From contig JAUNHV010000012.1 of the NCBI GenBank assembly GCA_030523725.1, positions 1-34,415 of the forward strand: a DNA stretch of 34,415 nt. Direction: 5' to 3'. Positions 6,001 to 34,415 of this stretch are shown piece by piece. Within the stretch, counting starts at the first letter, position 1; the number at the start of each line of letters is the position of its first letter. The notes under the pieces are model-generated. The model searched no databases. It saw only the letters and a program-made list of their open reading frames with translations, and was not told the DNA's origin. Both the position numbers and the translations under genes were made by a program. Source of the stretch: Synergistaceae bacterium (GTDB taxonomy: Bacteria > Synergistota > Synergistia > Synergistales > Synergistaceae).

Positions 6001-8613
6001 GGCAAGGCAATTTTTGAAAATGGCCGCATGCTAAATGTGGTTGGTAAAGCAACAGGACAGCTCAATCTACATGATATCAACCTTACGGGAGTAGATCCAG
6101 CTGCTTGGCTGCCATATGAAGAGAATAAAAAGCAAATGCAGTATCTAAGCGCCAGTGTGATTTCTGCTACTGGCACAGATATGACAATAGCAAATTCATT
6201 AACAGCTGTGCTTGGTAACACTGGTACATCCTTTACCTTCAAACAAGCAGTAGATGGAACAGGAAAGAAAATTATTGGTTGGATGGATGTAATAGCAGGT
6301 AATTCATACACCTTGTCGGAGGTAATTGCAGGCGATACGTGGGAAAAAGATGGTAAAGATTATGATGGCAAAACTCATAAAGCAGGAGAGCTCATTAACG
6401 CTACAGATTCTGCCTATGCACGTGGTGTAAATGTCTACACGTTGCAAGATAGTGGTAACAATACCTACATTGCGTCTCGTGGCTTAGGTCAACTGAAATG
6501 TGCGGAGGATACAGCATCTGCATCTCGTTCCATGATAATAAAAAGTGGTACAAACGATGATGGTACAATCAAGCAAATGAAATTCTATGGGACAGGTGCA
6601 GCTGTTACTAGCAATGAAGACAGAGGAGGGCTGATTATTGGTGATACTTCTAAACCGCAACAAACACAAAATGTTGAGGTTCAGAATATTGCAGAGATAG
6701 CCAAATGGAAGGATCATAAGGCCTTCACAGTTAATTCCAATGGAGAGCTAAGTTTTAACGGAGAAGATGTTAAGCTCACACTCTTGGACGGAATAGTTAA
6801 TAACGATGGTGGAACGGTTACATTTAATCAGAATACAATTTTGAAATTTGCAGATGAAGATACAAAGAAAGCAGGGATATTGTCAGGCAAAGGCAGCTAC
6901 ATAAACAATGCAATAATGACAGTTACAGATGCAGCCAAACTTGCAATGACGGGGCAAAAGGGACTTGAAAATATAGGTACGTTGATTTTGACGGGAGGAA
7001 CACTTGCAAAGGGCGTAACGGTAACGGGAACAGGTTTAACGCTCATAGACGGAATAGTAAAATCCGATACCAAGATAGCCAACATGATAACGATAAATCC
7101 CGATAAATCACTTGAGATTTCAGCAGATAACGTTGGGGGAAAAGTAACAAACAACGAAGGAACACTTATCTTGAATGGTGGCACCTTATCCCAGCAGGTG
7201 AATACTGCACTAGAGGGACAGATTGGTACGATAGATCTCCAGGCAGCAACAGAAATTGCAGCTAAAGTAAAAAATCAGAACATAAAAGCTACGAAAGGCT
7301 ATTCTAAAGTTTCAGTTGAAAGCTATATAGCTAACAATGATTTAACCTTTAACGGTGGTGGTTTTGACTTTAGAGATGACAAGGTGTCAAATTACGTGGT
7401 CAAAAATATTAACCTTACTGATAATGGTAATTTGAAGCTTGATGTAGACCTTGCAAATAAATTGATGGATACCCTTAATGTTGCCGATGGAGGAGGCGTT
7501 ACCGGGACAGGAAAACTTCATGTCACTGCCCTTACACTTTTATCAGACGCAAAACAGAACAAAACAAATATTGCCTTCACAGAGACAGACGCCTTGAAGG
7601 GACATGTTGTGTCAGACGTTACACATGTAGCATCAGACATGTGGAAATACCTCGTTGCCTATGATGAAGAGACTGGTGAATTTGCCTTCACAAAGAACGG
7701 CAGAAATGAGCCAGACAAGCCAGAGGTTAGCGAAACGGTCATGTCAGTTTCAGACACGGCGAATGCAATAAACCTTGCATGGTTGGAGACAACTAATACG
7801 CTACAAAAACGCCTTGGTGACCTCCGTGGAGGAGAAGCGAGCAACACAGGTTGGGCACGTTTCCAGAGAAGCAACGATGATCACAAGGGAGCAAGAAAAC
7901 TCAACGTTTCTGGTAACCTCTATCAGCTTGGTTATGACGTTGCCTTAAAGAATATTACGGCTGCTCGTGGTTACTTTGGTCTCTCCCTTGAGCATTTTGA
8001 CGGAAGCCAGTCATATAAGATTGGTGGTGGCGATGTAAAATCCACATCACTTAGCGCATACTACACAAAGATTTATGACAGTGGTCACTACTTTGACTTC
8101 ATCTTCCGTTATGGTAGATATGAAAGCGACACAACAAGCTACGACGCAGGACTTTCCACAAAACTCGACTACGGTATGAACGGAGTAACCTTATCCGGTG
8201 AATATGGATATAGAGCAAATATTGGTAAGAATGGATTCTACTTCGAGCCACAGGCAGAAGTTATCTATGGTTATTTAGCTGGAGCAAAGAAGACAAGTAG
8301 CAGAGGCATCTTGGCAGACATAGATAGCACAAACCACTTTGTGACAAGACTTGGTGTTGCCTTGGGTAAGAAGGTTAAAAACTTTAATTACTACTTAAGA
8401 GGCAGCTACTATCATGACTTTGCTGGTTCAACAAACATCTTGTATGGAGATGCATCATACAAACAAGACAGTGCGAGAAACTGGTGGGAACTTTCCCTCG
8501 GTGGAGGCTGGAACATGACAGACGCAAGTTACTTCTATGCAGAACTCACCAAACACTTCAAGGATGTAAGTAACTCGATAAACTTTAATTTAGGTTTCCG
8601 CTTCACACTGTAA
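1..8613 (+). CDS. Giant autotransporter adhesin with DUF6273-like head and Pmp-like repeats (5' partial)
   Basis: The reading frame is open from base 1, so the start and most of the signal peptide lie upstream. The first visible residues (TSVVTPARADEP) look like the end of a signal peptide with cleavage after ARA. About 2,870 residues are visible. Residues around 48-220 resemble DUF6273 (WWLRSPGS, then VRPAFNLN). Bases about 2100-2720 encode seven GGA(I/V) units alternating with GDFIGNY, like chlamydial Pmp beta-helix repeats. A long repetitive passenger follows, with a duplicated 331-residue module and 108-residue tandem units. The last ~280 residues (from LQKRLGDLR near 7800) form an autotransporter barrel ending GFRFTL. 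The predicted role is a surface passenger exported by its own barrel; the ligand is unknown. The barrel and 3' hairpin closely match the second autotransporter at 28460-31645. Confidence 0.9.
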   Translation, partial: TSVVTPARADEPLKAGLIKIDQILQMGDPTKKGIGGGASTSTGAAADMAKTIYFCKQGEKSLLWRVLSTNETITAGAGTRVLLLSDKSLVTSAFDSNGKNAWSGSEVRELLLYVEAAFDEREQAQIAETQLTDVETGGTSDHLFLLSNEEVAGKTDKSKSYGFTDGLSRIATGAGAYGAWWLRSPGSEDSYAFGVDSAGTVGETKVFNKGLAVRPAFNLNPESVLFLSAAVGGKGAEACVGKFGIDNTYDGKDGWKVTLRDPNINKPTVIEAKVVGAKWDVNDLAAEATKEGGSKVINISKQTPTGDVGLKISYSGATPDEDTKGGRKNMYVSALLKDGDTFVNYAKVNAITSATETSGNKLVDITNVMPKSGSKDYTLYIYGEQENGDKNTDYASSFSVHTVTIPAKVPAEVITVLSHAKYGASGLTANLSNNCELGFEGGKYDTKIIVGEGEKGKITADKNGTTLTGDVTLGNKAVLTMGGKFTLENNLFKLQSDLAQDKAGKIEAEDLTISGNLKIQFMNDPIFATGTESVMGKKIPILTVTNGIDASEMNKIIGLPTRVTKGIFTPTLALGGDQTIYLTGFTFGIDRRYQLVKGSAWQSGSPIPYGSVVEKDTDGKLYTYKVKTGVGPWGRVGRGLDDVTDENKKTEYYKWGETTLEVTDAETADITVTYNKTNLAPGTKHKTSFDGSYTAYVGLYDATENGGGAVYNETEYKEEVKADFIRNFVIKGLNVAYGGAIYNDDKLNAVTGDFIGNYASSTGTSAYGGAICNWFNKGTIEAITGDFIGNYARGTSFLGPLIDTCASGGAIHNNGGSTINNIIGDFIGNYALSMAEGVAACGGAIGNRGTINSLTGNFIGNYVSAEDVSVTTRGGAIYNEGNITISAKNVDIKFSGNTASEGGAIYNNTDGTLKLYAASGKSITFVGRADNQTVDSVHNISNLYINNTDREDGSYTGTINLATVTGANGKIYINGGTVNLHGAVTQQEIENNAFLNLEKGSTLASNITMKEGSKGVTNFNTDFTVGENQKITQDTINIGDAGKSATVTTNIDNLNASSIKVGSAGVLNLTSGMIGKAIANSGTVAAKSGAVVNSTITNTPATGKVKLEKDSSFGASGKVTGGELVFEEGTEFKPANIENIKNLTSNGAKLNFAAKIVDEDGGKAIFENGRMLNVVGKATGQLNLHDINLTGVDPAAWLPYEENKKQMQYLSASVISATGTDMTIANSLTAVLGNTGTSFTFKQAVDGTGKKIIGWMDVIAGNSYTLSEVIAGDTWEKDGKDYDGKTHKAGELINATDSAYARGVNVYTLQDSGNNTYIASRGLGQLKCAEDTASASRTMIIKSGANGKGTVKQMKFYGTGATPTRSDDRGGLIIGDTSKPTQTQEVEVQNVAEIAKWKDHKAFTVNSNGELSFSGEDVNLTLLDGIVNNDGGTVTFNQNTILKFADDDVSKAGKLSGAGSYINKRTMTIADMAKLDVSELTNKGIVNLEDNGTLGVKIAGGTFNIKENVTSQADKIAGDTNTIAASKTLTITSGTLARAVSGDGTVKFTGGDIAADVTSKVLEIAGHVTAKADNIKGTTNKITSGTLKLTSGIVLNGQVTGNGTLEFATDIRTNVANVAADTNMVDSGVTLTLTGTDTATGTLNKVISGEGNLVVDGTVSSGVANFANSGALSVRSGTLELTSGTLTKAIDNAGTVKLAGANLGGAYVTKGTLEFAQSISTNASYVAAATNRVDSGVTLTLTGTDTATGTLSKVINGDGNLVVDGTVSSDVANLANSGALSVRSGTLELTSGTLTRAIDNAGTVKLAGANLDGTYVTKGMLEFASNLVTNASYVAAVTNLVDSGVTLTLNEGTLAKAVMGDGTVKFTGGELAADVTSSQLVFAGDVTANADKIQGIISNKVTSGTLELISGTLTTALANSSKVTMQNGVKLNSTVTNETATASTKLASGASFGVNGKVTGGELVFEEGTEFKPANIENIKNLTSNGAKLNFAAKIVDEDGGKAIFENGRMLNVVGKATGQLNLHDINLTGVDPAAWLPYEENKKQMQYLSASVISATGTDMTIANSLTAVLGNTGTSFTFKQAVDGTGKKIIGWMDVIAGNSYTLSEVIAGDTWEKDGKDYDGKTHKAGELINATDSAYARGVNVYTLQDSGNNTYIASRGLGQLKCAEDTASASRSMIIKSGTNDDGTIKQMKFYGTGAAVTSNEDRGGLIIGDTSKPQQTQNVEVQNIAEIAKWKDHKAFTVNSNGELSFNGEDVKLTLLDGIVNNDGGTVTFNQNTILKFADEDTKKAGILSGKGSYINNAIMTVTDAAKLAMTGQKGLENIGTLILTGGTLAKGVTVTGTGLTLIDGIVKSDTKIANMITINPDKSLEISADNVGGKVTNNEGTLILNGGTLSQQVNTALEGQIGTIDLQAATEIAAKVKNQNIKATKGYSKVSVESYIANNDLTFNGGGFDFRDDKVSNYVVKNINLTDNGNLKLDVDLANKLMDTLNVADGGGVTGTGKLHVTALTLLSDAKQNKTNIAFTETDALKGHVVSDVTHVASDMWKYLVAYDEETGEFAFTKNGRNEPDKPEVSETVMSVSDTANAINLAWLETTNTLQKRLGDLRGGEASNTGWARFQRSNDDHKGARKLNVSGNLYQLGYDVALKNITAARGYFGLSLEHFDGSQSYKIGGGDVKSTSLSAYYTKIYDSGHYFDFIFRYGRYESDTTSYDAGLSTKLDYGMNGVTLSGEYGYRANIGKNGFYFEPQAEVIYGYLAGAKKTSSRGILADIDSTNHFVTRLGVALGKKVKNFNYYLRGSYYHDFAGSTNILYGDASYKQDSARNWWELSLGGGWNMTDASYFYAELTKHFKDVSNSINFNLGFRFTL
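3351..4343 (+). repeat. Large intragenic direct repeat, copy A
   Basis: This block recurs 2,517 bases downstream, exactly 839 codons, so the reading frame is kept. From about 3370 to 3990 I found no base difference from copy B. The last ~350 bases are clearly diverged but still alignable. It encodes the passenger module starting GGELVFEEGTEFK. Confidence 0.92.
4873..5520 (+). repeat. Two tandem 324-bp (108-residue) passenger repeats
   Basis: Units at 4873-5196 and 5197-5520 both begin with VDSGVTLTLTGTDTATGTL and carry SGALSVRSGTLELTSGTLT. A third, diverged unit starts at 5521 with VDSGVTLTL. The units differ at scattered bases, so they are older than the 625-bp identical block. Unit number is expected to vary by recombination. 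Confidence 0.88.
5868..6860 (+). repeat. Large intragenic direct repeat, copy B
   Basis: Second copy of the block at 3351-4343. The first ~625 bases are identical by eye, even at third codon positions. The flanks and the 3' third differ. This pattern suggests a recent duplication or gene conversion limited to the middle of the module. Confidence 0.92.
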
Positions 8614-8615
8614 AT

Positions 8616-8742
8616 AAAACGAGGATTATATACCTCATCTGCTTTGCGGTTGGGCGTAAAAGGATGCTCGATGGACGGTAAGTCCACCTGCGCTCCTTTT
8701 GCATCCAACCGCTTTGCATTTGAGGCATCTAATCCTCGTTTT
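8616..8742 (+). terminator. Long 127-bp imperfect hairpin after autotransporter 1
   Basis: Two 61-nt arms (8616-8676 and 8682-8742) flank a 5-nt loop (GGTAA). About 45 positions pair by Watson-Crick rules and 3 by G-U. The outer 13 bp are perfect (AAAACGAGGATTA against TAATCCTCGTTTT), and the 3' arm runs out in T residues. It starts 2 nt after the stop codon. A near-identical copy sits at the same offset behind the second autotransporter. It is likely a terminator or 3'-end stabiliser. Confidence 0.75.
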
Positions 8743-8812
8743 TGGTTGAGCATTGAAGGAATATTGAATGTGCAAAATGCTTGGCGGGAGCCAAGCGCTT
8801 ATAGCAAAGAGC

Positions 8813-31400: not shown

Positions 31401-31645
31401 AGAGAGTTAAGAACTTTAATTACTATTTAAGAGGAAGCTATTATCATGACTTCGCCGGTGCAACAAACGTTAGATACGGCGATGCTTCATACAAGCAGGA
31501 CAGCGCACAAAACTGGTGGGAAGTTTCTCTCGGTGGCGGCTGGAACATGTCAAACACAAGTTACTTCTATGCAGAACTCACGAAACACTTCAAGGATGTA
31601 AGTAACTCTGTTAACTTTAATCTTGGTTTCCGCTTCACACTGTAA
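28460..31645 (+). CDS. Autotransporter adhesin with Pmp-like GGAI repeats
   Basis: 1,061 residues. The long signal peptide (residues 1 to about 45) has an extended basic start and ends near SPAFG-EV. The passenger carries eleven GGA(I/L) units (bases about 28970-30000), alternating with (G/N)FIGNYV, a right-handed beta-helix pattern like chlamydial Pmp proteins. A short unrelated segment follows. The C-terminal ~285 residues form the autotransporter barrel from LQKRLGDLRGG to GFRFTL, very similar to the barrel of the gene at 1-8613. FWGRVGRG is also shared with WGRVGRG there. It lacks the DUF6273 head and the 331-residue modules. The GGGGAG ribosome site precedes the ATG. It is likely surface-exposed; the ligand is unknown. 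Confidence 0.93.
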   Translation: MKKITKFTKSYFNGSARKFLCLGLCVMLVVFAMGSLTPVVSPAFGEVVYGDHRYQLYNTHSLSPTPPYGFVNVYQFSSEEGLSGYTALIKFANDPANPSKPLFWGRVGRGASGPTNTRVYDWDDDTRSLVEVTDGYITAKYDETNQVNERKTALDESVTLYKDCFSSNDRGGALYVNDSSNKKIKADFVGNGLQVESAGGPTILGGAIYFYESTVGDVEGDFISNYVDVKAASPSAYGGAISIVAAQIGNLKGDFIANHINVESTSTDGMLSGEGGAIRNYGQIESITGDFLANYICQTGEQAEFSLLQGGAIYNFSSGEIGDIAGNFVGNYLQSQTATVNGGAIYSAYATLGNITGDFIGNYVQSTTSSGSGGAIHNESSVVGNITGNFIGNYVVSGSFASGGAINFQGVSGGVVKGNFIGNYVQVTGEMYCSANGGAICNTVGGDSKVEITGDFIGNYAQAAGEGSRAYGGAINNSGKINIVTKDKDILFSGNYVSAQDPANALGGAIRNGGTLTLNAAGHSITFVGDAANDKVDSVYNRGKLYITGDGDVKFAEITNDADEYGVGIVIGNMAGGSFTNYGAWLPFDTATQTSTNTVDVTFGRENEELPGTFFGYIDMNDIDWDGHSARSFRQLTINGDTARNNTFTANGGTFVINTNLAKGEGDLITLNHANVSGTAYVKVAYDPFYATAVNGQRITGDHTFLKVTNGSIKILPQKTAYDKGNGYTVIITPTVKGDSDGTEWKITALTAGEYIPDPVVVEGEMVKAVSDTSNAINMAWMNNVNNLQKRLGDLRGGAASNTGWARFQRNNDDLKTGRQLNVSGNLYQLGYDVALKGDSASRGYFGLSVEHFDGTHSYKIGSGDLKSTSLAAYYTKIYDSGHYFDLIFRYGRYNSDTTNLDTTVENPILTKLDYAVNGVTLSGEYGYRWNFGKDGFYLEPQAELIYGHLGGAKKLSSASILADVDSTNHFITRCGVALGQRVKNFNYYLRGSYYHDFAGATNVRYGDASYKQDSAQNWWEVSLGGGWNMSNTSYFYAELTKHFKDVSNSVNFNLGFRFTL

Positions 31646-31647
31646 AT

Positions 31648-31774
31648 AAAACGAGGATTATATACCTCATCTGCTTTGCGGTTGGGCGTAAAAGGATGCT
31701 CGATGGACGACTAGTCCACCTGCGCTCCTTTTGCACCCAACCGCTTTGCATCTGAGGCATCTAATCCTCGTTTT
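31648..31774 (+). terminator. Long 127-bp imperfect hairpin after autotransporter 2
   Basis: Same length, arms and offset (2 nt after the stop) as the hairpin at 8616-8742. One arm change (T to C) turns a G-U into a G-C pair, and the 5-nt loop is GACTA instead of GGTAA. Six T follow the 3' arm, a better termination signal than in copy 1. Confidence 0.78.
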
Positions 31775-31869
31775 TTAATTGAGATAATATGAAGTGGCCT
31801 CGGGATTGGGAAAAGCTTCACTTTATGTTGTTTCACTTTATAAAAGAAAAGAAAATTTTGAAATTAGAA

Positions 31870-32846: not shown

Positions 32847-34070
32847 TTAAATCATCCAAATTGGTACAATATAATTATCTGCATTAAGAGCAGAAAGCTC
32901 AGGTCTCATGCATACAACCGCACCTTTTCCTCTCGGCACATGACCTTTATCCAATACCGAAAAAGAAGATATTATCTTGTTTTCTGGATTAATGCTCTTC
33001 TTAACTTCAATCGGATGTAGTGCTCCGTCTTGTTCAATTATCATATCAATTTCTACTGTATCTTTGTCGCGGTAATACCACTGTAAACAATCTATTGCAC
33101 TATTCTGATATGTTTTTTGAATTTCAGCAACCACATAATTTTCTAAAATTGCACCATTCATTGCCCCTGCCTCTAACACTTCCGGTGAAGAATACCTTGT
33201 AAGGTAAGCCACAAGCCCTGTGTCAAAGAAATAGAGCTTTGGTGTCTTTAGCGTCCGTTTAAGAAGATTATTTGAATAAGGCCTTAGGTAAAAAATCACA
33301 TCAGATTTTTCAAGAACCTGAAGCCATCTTTTTGCCGTATCGTCTGAAACACCAACGTCACCTGCAATGCTGTGAACGTTTAAAATTTGCCCCACTCTAC
33401 ATGCAGCTGCACGTATAAAATCTTGGAATAGTAGCTTATCTACTCCGCTGATAATATCACTAACATCACGGTCAATGTAGGTCTGCACATAGCTAGAATA
33501 AAAAACTTCTCGATCCCTAAACTTTCCACTTCTATAGCCTGGAAGAGAGCCCTGCCAAATTCTCTCATACATTTCCTTCATAGTGCACTTTGTTCCCCTG
33601 CTTCCCCGTGCCTTTAGCTCTGTAAGGTCTAATCGAAATGGAATATTCTCTCCTGAACCATAAAGCTCATGCTGTGATAATGATGACATGTGAAGAATTG
33701 CAACTCTCCCCGCCAATGATTCTTGTGCAAGCTCCATCAGTTTAAAAGCCTGTGAACCAGTCAACCAAAAAGACGATGCAGGTGCCCCTTTATCTATTTC
33801 TATCTTGATGTATGAAAAGAGTTCTGGAGCATACTGAACTTCATCAATAAAAACAGGCATTTTATGTATTTGCAAAAATAATGCTGGATCTTTTTGAGCA
33901 AGTTTTCTTTCTTCCAAATCATCAAGGGTTACATATTCTCTACTATCTGTCATCAAATTTTTAAGAACTGTAGTCTTTCCAACTTGTCTTGGTCCAGTAA
34001 TCAAAATACAGGAATAATCCTCAACTAAGGACATAATTTTTGCTTCTAAGTCTCTTTTTATATATTCCAT
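32847..34070 (-). CDS. AAA family ATPase with C-terminal DUF4143 domain (copy 2)
   Basis: 407 residues. Walker A is ITGPRQVGKTT, Walker B is MPVFIDEVQ, and WLTGSQAFKLMELAQESLAGRVAIL is the sensor and arginine-finger region. The DUF4143 half includes DIISGVDKLLFQDFIRAAA, a winged-helix-like stretch (GVSDDTAKRWLQVL) and LYFFDTGLVAYLTRY. It ends in a PD-(D/E)xK-like pattern (ENYVVAEI, then VEIDMIIEQDGALHPIEVKKS) that is much clearer than in copy 1. AGGAG precedes the ATG at 34070. It belongs to a different subfamily from copy 1, not a recent duplicate. Function is unknown. Confidence 0.88.
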   Translation of the reverse strand: MEYIKRDLEAKIMSLVEDYSCILITGPRQVGKTTVLKNLMTDSREYVTLDDLEERKLAQKDPALFLQIHKMPVFIDEVQYAPELFSYIKIEIDKGAPASSFWLTGSQAFKLMELAQESLAGRVAILHMSSLSQHELYGSGENIPFRLDLTELKARGSRGTKCTMKEMYERIWQGSLPGYRSGKFRDREVFYSSYVQTYIDRDVSDIISGVDKLLFQDFIRAAACRVGQILNVHSIAGDVGVSDDTAKRWLQVLEKSDVIFYLRPYSNNLLKRTLKTPKLYFFDTGLVAYLTRYSSPEVLEAGAMNGAILENYVVAEIQKTYQNSAIDCLQWYYRDKDTVEIDMIIEQDGALHPIEVKKSINPENKIISSFSVLDKGHVPRGKGAVVCMRPELSALNADNYIVPIWMI

Positions 34071-34154: not shown

Positions 34155-34189
34155 AAAAAACAAACGAGCCACAGTTCCCCGTGACTCGT
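34155..34189 (-). terminator. Terminator of the rRNA operon
   Basis: Read leftward: ACGAGTCAC pairs with GTGGCTCGT (9 bp, one G-U) and TTTGTTTTTT follows. It sits about 12 nt past the 5S 3' end. Confidence 0.85.
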
Positions 34190-34200
34190 TCTTAAAAAAT

Positions 34201-34415
34201 CCCGATGTCCATCCTACTCTTCCACAAACCTTTGCTAGTAAACAGCTTTTTTGTGGCATAATTTGGCTCTAGTGCAAAGCCTTTCGTAGCTCCAGGGCGA
34301 AGGAGCGACCTAACAGGTCGTGACTAAGCACTGAGCAAGAAGGGCGAAGCAATAGGGACTAAGGATGCCACAAAAAACGGCGGTGAGATGCTTAACTGCT
34401 AGTTCGGAATGAGAC
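34201..34415 (-). rRNA. rrf: 5S rRNA, 5' end beyond the window, with a 131-nt internal insert
   Basis: Read leftward, the window edge starts with CATTCCGAACTAGCAGTTAAGC, the universal CCGAAC...AGTTAAGC core of 5S rRNA, cut here by an insert. The conserved distal part resumes with AAGGTTTGTGGAAGAGTAGG and ends with the 3' helix strand GGACATCGGGA. Removing the insert leaves 84 visible nt, and roughly 33 nt should lie outside the window, giving the normal ~117 nt. The gene is probably the last of an rRNA operon entering from the right, and a terminator follows it. Whether this copy is functional cannot be told. Confidence 0.85.
34247..34377 (-). other. Structured insert within 5S rRNA (expansion segment or intervening sequence)
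   Basis: 131 nt bounded by perfect 13-nt inverted repeats (TTTTTTGTGGCAT and ATGCCACAAAAAA). It lies between the helix strand CACCGCCG and the segment leading into the GAGTAGG arm, close to loop A. Inside, read leftward, GCTCAGTGC pairs with GCACTAGAGC (one bulged A). This stem encloses two hairpins: CGACCT/AGGTCG with loop GTT, and GCTCC/GGAGC. The result is a terminal stem carrying a branched domain. No open frame or target-site duplication was seen. Confidence 0.8.

What the first reader, a model, noticed from the sequence alone, without database searches (positions are those of the whole stretch)
34201..34415. 5S rRNA interrupted by a 131-nt folded domain
Both conserved 5S parts are present in order and, without the insert, the length is normal. 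The insert has a 13-bp perfect closing helix and an internal branched fold. Expanded 5S rRNAs are known from some halophilic archaea and a limited set of bacteria, with segments up to about 109 nt as I recall, so this one may be larger and in a new position. Two outcomes are possible: the segment stays in a bulky 5S, or RNase III cuts the closing helix, giving a two-piece 5S like the fragmented 23S rRNAs with intervening sequences.
Basis: partly seen in the sequence, partly recalled or inferred. Interest (0 to 1): 0.88.

Follow-up and report, generated by a model that had tools for sequence, protein, structure and literature searches.

The report
Decayed 5S copy split by hairpin
At the end of this contig lies part of a worn-out copy of the 5S ribosomal RNA gene, split by a long hairpin of a kind scattered elsewhere in the genome; it is probably a remnant beside the working rRNA genes, not a new form of ribosomal RNA.

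Summary
On the minus strand both halves of a 5S-like gene are present in order (34378-34415 and 34201-34246). They are split by a 131-nt imperfect hairpin (34247-34377) with a 13-bp closing stem (fold z = -5.1). The contig ends inside the gene, so about 31 nt of its 5' end are missing.

"5S rRNA with an expansion" is the weaker reading. The core breaks at least 10 of 55 columns that are at least 95% conserved in 26 normal 5S genes of the same order, where normals break 0-2 (one breaks 5). Another contig of the genome (C15) ends with a 5S 3' part that breaks none of 28 and is followed by the same terminator, though it stops one base short of the insertion site. In this family (Synergistaceae), at least five other genera carry extra 5S-like copies split by hairpins, in the resolved cases downstream of a normal 5S and its terminator. 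That matches the distal 5S "pseudogenes" of Stepanov & Fox 2021, who list no Synergistota.

The insert resembles, beyond structure alone, ~130-nt hairpins elsewhere in the genome. Most likely it is a decayed extra 5S copy invaded by a dispersed palindromic element. An extraribosomal RNA or a functional expanded 5S is not excluded.

The parts
34378..34415 (-). 5' part of the 5S-like gene (E. coli about 33-72), truncated by the contig end
   Evidence: nhmmer with 26 order 5S sequences E 0.0016; best alignment 82% to a family 5S, 0/500 shuffles as good
34247..34377 (-). 131-nt imperfect hairpin inserted between E. coli positions 72 and 73
   Evidence: fold z -5.08; 69% identical to its own reverse complement; site numbering
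34365..34377 (-). 5' arm of the 13-bp closing helix (TTTTTTGTGGCAT)
   Evidence: sequence; fold
34247..34259 (-). 3' arm of the 13-bp closing helix (ATGCCACAAAAAA)
   Evidence: sequence; fold
34201..34246 (-). 3' part of the 5S-like gene: damaged loop E 5' strand, helix IV, AGAGTAGG, changed helix I 3' strand
   Evidence: 0/500 shuffles as good; 67% identical to the C15 copy of the same genome; over both halves 10 of 55 conserved columns broken
34155..34191 (-). intrinsic terminator after the 5S-like gene, same sequence as after the canonical 5S 3' part on contig C15
8616..8742 (+). related ~127-nt imperfect hairpin, directly after a 2868-aa open reading frame
   Evidence: R3 40.6 bits with filters off; sequence similarity to the insert beyond structure-preserving shuffles, 1/1000
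31648..31774 (+). second copy of that hairpin, directly after an autotransporter gene
   Evidence: R3 36.2 bits; fold; Pfam PF03797 for the gene

Best explanation
A duplicated, decaying 5S-like gene copy, probably the distal unit after a normal 5S gene and its terminator in one rRNA operon, has been split by a dispersed ~130-nt palindromic (imperfect hairpin) element. Shown: the split 5S, the degenerate core, the shared terminator, a second contig with a canonical 5S 3' part, hairpin-split 5S-like copies in relatives, and the resemblance of the insert to hairpins elsewhere in the genome. Inferred: the position downstream of a normal 5S, the route of insertion, and that any transcript is not built into ribosomes. 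If read-through transcription occurs, the insert would form an independent hairpin.
For: Core decay: at least 10 of 55 conserved columns broken plus 6 extra letters, against 0-2 (one outlier, 5) in normals and 0 of 28 in the C15 copy; the 3' half is at most 67% identical to any normal 5S, while the lowest pair of normals is 70%. Same genome: contig C15 ends in a canonical 5S 3' part followed by the same terminator; tips of C3 and C9 carry 16S 5' ends, so at least two operons. Relatives: extra hairpin-split 5S-like copies in genera g4, g7, g10, g15 and g21, seen directly after normal 5S + terminator in G006, G014 and G023. Insert: R3 with filters off matches two other hairpins in the window and others on contigs C11 and C2; alignment beats structure-preserving shuffles 1/1000 and 4/1000, and only in the matching orientation. 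Precedent: distal 5S remnants with insertions in PMC7812874.
Against: The upstream half is missing, so a normal 5S before it is not shown. The C15 copy begins at E. coli U74, one base past the insertion site, so it does not prove an uninterrupted 5S. The 5' half keeps the main 5S motifs, and spliced length is near normal. Similarity of the insert to the other hairpins is weak, and those copies may have spread by duplication of the genes they follow. The hairpins in relatives sit at other sites and are a different sequence family. No clear target-site duplication (GCCG / GCTG is only suggestive).
Confidence: 0.68

Rival explanations
1. A functional expanded 5S rRNA of about 248 nt, with the hairpin retained and projecting from the edge of loop E.
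For: Correct order and spacing of both parts, hairpin insert, intrinsic terminator. Expanded 5S rRNAs are known and may coexist with normal ones (PMC7812874).
Against: Degenerate core including loop E, loop C and helix I 3' strand; a canonical 3' part in the same genome; relatives with resolved operons have normal 5S genes.
Confidence: 0.1
2. A two-piece 5S: RNase III cuts the closing helix and both fragments stay in the ribosome, as with 23S intervening sequences.
For: 13-bp perfect closing helix and long stem; excision without rejoining is established for 23S (PMC4990558, PMC11270868).
Against: Same core decay; no insertion of at least 100 bp in any of 645 CPR 5S genes (PMC11270868); no direct evidence of cutting.
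Confidence: 0.04
3. A 5S-derived non-coding RNA with a job outside the ribosome, one of a class of operon-distal, hairpin-bearing 5S-like RNAs kept in Synergistaceae.
For: In relatives, insert B is 89-94% identical between genomes (89% between genera), about as conserved as the 5S itself (88.8%), while the downstream flank is about 49%; the hairpin shows strong covariation; distal copies recur in several genera.
Against: The window copy shares neither insert sequence nor site with those, has no relative in the order at default sensitivity, and its core is the most degenerate examined. The hairpin also lies at many non-5S places, which favours a mobile element.
Confidence: 0.12
4. An assembly or binning artefact joining a 5S end to a foreign hairpin.
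For: It lies at a contig tip of a draft genome whose tips overlap by exactly 55 bases; no reads available.
Against: Both 5S parts flank the insert and the genome's own terminator follows; a relative with a complete one-contig genome (G014) shows the same kind of arrangement.
Confidence: 0.06

Closest known systems
Distal 5S rRNA remnants (pseudogenes) with insertions, Stepanov & Fox 2021 (PMC7812874)
   Same: 5S-like core with altered parts, large self-folding insertion, terminator; such copies occur downstream of normal 5S genes in relatives of this genome
   Different: Those are in Peptococcaceae and Pseudoalteromonas; this is Synergistota. The 72/73 site and the link to dispersed hairpins in the same genome are not described in the text I read. 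Position after a normal 5S is not shown for the window copy
Expanded 5S rRNAs (Halococcus, Thermoanaerobacterium and others; 13-109 nt inserts)
   Same: Insertion folds by itself and leaves both flanking halves in register
   Different: 131 nt, at the edge of loop E (72/73), and the core is degenerate
Intervening sequences of 23S rRNA excised by RNase III
   Same: Stem-closed insertion in an rRNA gene
   Different: In a 5S-like copy, no open reading frame of note, no evidence of excision
Small dispersed palindromic repeats of bacteria (REP/MITE-like; recalled, not tested against a library)
   Same: Near-palindromic, several copies, intergenic
   Different: No transposase partner or clear target duplication identified; copies differ strongly in sequence

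Membership tests
Functional expanded 5S rRNA | Both 5S parts flank a self-folding insertion, in order and near-normal spacing | tested here: met
Functional expanded 5S rRNA | Conserved core intact | tested here: not met
   At least 10 of 55 columns broken and 6 extra letters, against 0-2 (one case 5) in normals
Functional expanded 5S rRNA | Both ends present and pairing as helix I | not testable with these tools
   Contig ends inside the gene; only the 3' strand is present
Functional expanded 5S rRNA | Only 5S type in the cell, or same context as a functional 5S | tested here: inconclusive
   C15 carries a canonical 3' part with the same terminator but stops one base past the insertion site
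Distal 5S remnant with insertion | 5S-like core with degenerate or missing parts and a large insertion | tested here: met
Distal 5S remnant with insertion | Located downstream of a normal 5S at the end of an rRNA operon, preceded by a terminator | tested here: inconclusive
   Upstream sequence missing; met in relatives G006, G014, G023
RNase III-excised intervening sequence | Closing helix around the insertion | tested here: met
   13-bp perfect helix
RNase III-excised intervening sequence | Excision giving a fragmented rRNA | not testable with these tools
   No RNA data
Dispersed palindromic element | Related copies elsewhere in the genome | tested here: met
   R3 with filters off: 40.6, 36.2, 44.1, 35.0, 21.9 bits at five other loci; sequence similarity beyond structure-preserving shuffles. 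Weak: missed with default filters
Dispersed palindromic element | Target-site duplication or empty site | tested here: inconclusive
   GCCG before and GCTG after the insert; flank too diverged to decide

The most novel reading that the evidence does not exclude
Synergistaceae keep operon-distal 5S-derived RNAs in which structured hairpins have been built into a 5S scaffold at several fixed sites, and which serve a conserved function outside the ribosome; the window copy is a divergent member with an insert longer than any reported for an expanded 5S.
Probability: 0.13. Interest if true: 0.75.

Novelty: new variant of a known kind. Interest (0 to 1): 0.42.

Why it matters
It extends the rare split 5S-like genes to a new phylum and suggests where such inserts come from: dispersed genomic hairpins that settle in spare 5S copies, and could reach working 5S genes by recombination, as Stepanov & Fox proposed for other groups. 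In relatives the inserted hairpin is about as conserved as 5S itself, which makes the question of function testable.

Tried and rejected
RF00001, 16S and 23S family searches of the own genome found nothing; the rRNA operons are not in the bin. Rfam at relaxed thresholds gave only chance matches or, in relatives' loci, nothing for the inserts. The insert is not the R1 or R2 hairpin family of relatives. Exact 20-mer scans of public genome and viral collections gave three unrelated hits and none; records of the own genome may be left out there, so this does not test close relatives. A fold scan for unbranched hairpins was too loose (345 hits in 412 kb; shuffles gave 209 raw hits in 174 kb) and was replaced by a palindrome count. 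Group I/II introns and homing endonuclease genes: no Rfam match and no room for such a gene in 131 nt. Papers on 5S insertions in Synergistetes: none relevant. The class-wide R1 search repeated the order-wide one because the held class has one order.

Full report
What was given. The window is the whole contig C14 (34,415 bases) of a 1.55-Mb, 15-contig genome. The organism belongs to the family that holds G001, whose single contig of 1,848,474 bases has exactly the length of the Thermanaerovibrio acidaminovorans genome (PMC3035242), with three 5S copies where the paper gives three rRNA operons. The order is the only one of its class among held genomes. I infer phylum Synergistota, family Synergistaceae.

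The observation. Read on the minus strand, the last 215 bases hold the middle and 3' part of a 5S-like gene. The 5' part (34415-34378) contains CCGAAC and GCAGTTAAGC; a profile of 26 normal 5S genes from this order finds it at E 0.0016 in the window. The 3' part (34246-34201) is weaker, but both parts beat all 500 shuffles. Between them lies a 131-nt insert with 13-bp perfect arms, z = -5.08, none of 200 shuffles as stable, and 69% identity to its own reverse complement. The insertion point corresponds to E. coli 72/73, directly before the 5' strand of loop E.

The core is decayed. In the most favourable alignment 10 of 55 columns conserved at 95% or more are broken and 6 letters are extra; normal 5S genes tested leave-one-out break 0-2, one breaks 5 (the alignment allowed no insertions and gave 19). 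The 3' half is at most 67% identical to any normal 5S, below the 70% minimum among the normals themselves.

The same genome has a better copy. Contig C15 ends with 44 bases of 5S 3' part that break none of 28 conserved columns, followed by the same terminator as in C14. Two contigs, C3 and C9, end in 16S 5' ends (recognised by eye from the sequence), so there are at least two operons. A caution: C15 begins at U74, just past the insertion site, so whether that gene is uninterrupted is not known. Where contig tips can be paired they overlap by exactly 55 bases, as expected of an assembly graph broken at repeats.

Relatives. In G014 all five operons examined have one or two extra 5S-like copies after the normal 5S and its terminator, most carrying one or two hairpins of about 55-60 nt after GTGGGA (E. 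coli 99). G006 and G023, of two other genera, have an extra copy with two inserts, one after alignment column 60 and one at the same 99 site. G033, G009, G020 and G008 carry the same or similar hairpins in 5S-derived 3' parts. G029 and G020 also carry hairpins after the first ~17 nt of 5S-like copies in the 23S-5S spacer. The 99-site hairpin of G006 and G023 (model R1) is dispersed: 30 copies in G002, 16 in G029, 14 in G014, mostly away from 5S. Its helices covary strongly (46 cells changed on both sides against 11.5 in shuffles, 0/500, and no slid control comes near). It is 89% identical between genera, about as conserved as 5S (88.8%), while the downstream flank compares at about 49%.

The insert itself. 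It is not R1 or R2. A single-sequence model of it (R3) found nothing but itself in 183 genomes with speed filters on. With filters off it matches two further places in the window, 8606-8750 and 31638-31780 (40.6 and 36.2 bits), and places on C11 and C2 (44.1, 35.0 and 21.9 bits), as well as a hairpin between the normal and the distal 5S of G006 (37.5 bits). The two window hairpins directly follow a 2868-aa open reading frame and an autotransporter gene. Because a model with 44 pairs rewards any long hairpin, I compared sequence against structure-preserving shuffles: the insert's score against the 8616 hairpin was reached by 1 of 1000 in the matching orientation and by 173 of 1000 in the other. 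The relation is therefore likely but distant. About 77% of the genome was screened for near-palindromes; four copies of the 8616 family were found, two of them in the window.

Interpretation. The simplest account is a spare 5S-like copy at an operon end, no longer held to 5S function, that received one of the genome's palindromic elements. This agrees with the distal 5S remnants described for Peptococcaceae and Pseudoalteromonas (PMC7812874), where the authors also consider pseudogenization or an extraribosomal function for some expanded 5S. The functional-expansion and two-piece readings are not excluded because the 5' end is missing, but they have to explain the damaged core.

Noticed in passing
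Alignment A6; loci L105-L134: A dispersed, strongly covarying ~50-nt hairpin (ATAAGTGAGAYAGGAAATC..GATTTCCGTYRTCGAACTTAG) in 11 of 183 genomes of the order, up to 30 copies per genome, repeatedly placed inside 5S-derived sequence. No Rfam family above threshold for it in the three loci scanned.
   Followed up: partly
L131 1490-1800 and L122 370-460: Copies of the first ~17 nt of 5S, each followed by that hairpin, stand in the 23S-5S spacer (three in tandem in G029, one in G020); in G029 two of them end in a segment complementary to the 5S start.
   Followed up: partly
L085-L088, L011 (G014): All five rRNA operons examined end in one or two extra 5S-like copies; a second hairpin type there swaps its apical stem between two fully complementary versions.
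   Followed up: partly
L074 1022-1240 and L062 1319-1553: A ~138-nt structured insert (insert A) shared by distal 5S-like copies of two genera, 67% identical, found clearly only in G006 and G023, with weak matches in G033 and G008.
   Followed up: partly
window 8616-8742 and 31648-31774; L196 about 11990; L205 about 9333: Four copies of a ~127-nt imperfect hairpin; the two in the window start directly after the stop codon of large surface-protein-like genes.
   Followed up: partly
window 25758-27104 and 32847-34070: Two AAA_14/DUF4143 ATPase genes in one contig, the second directly downstream of the 5S-like copy.
   Followed up: no
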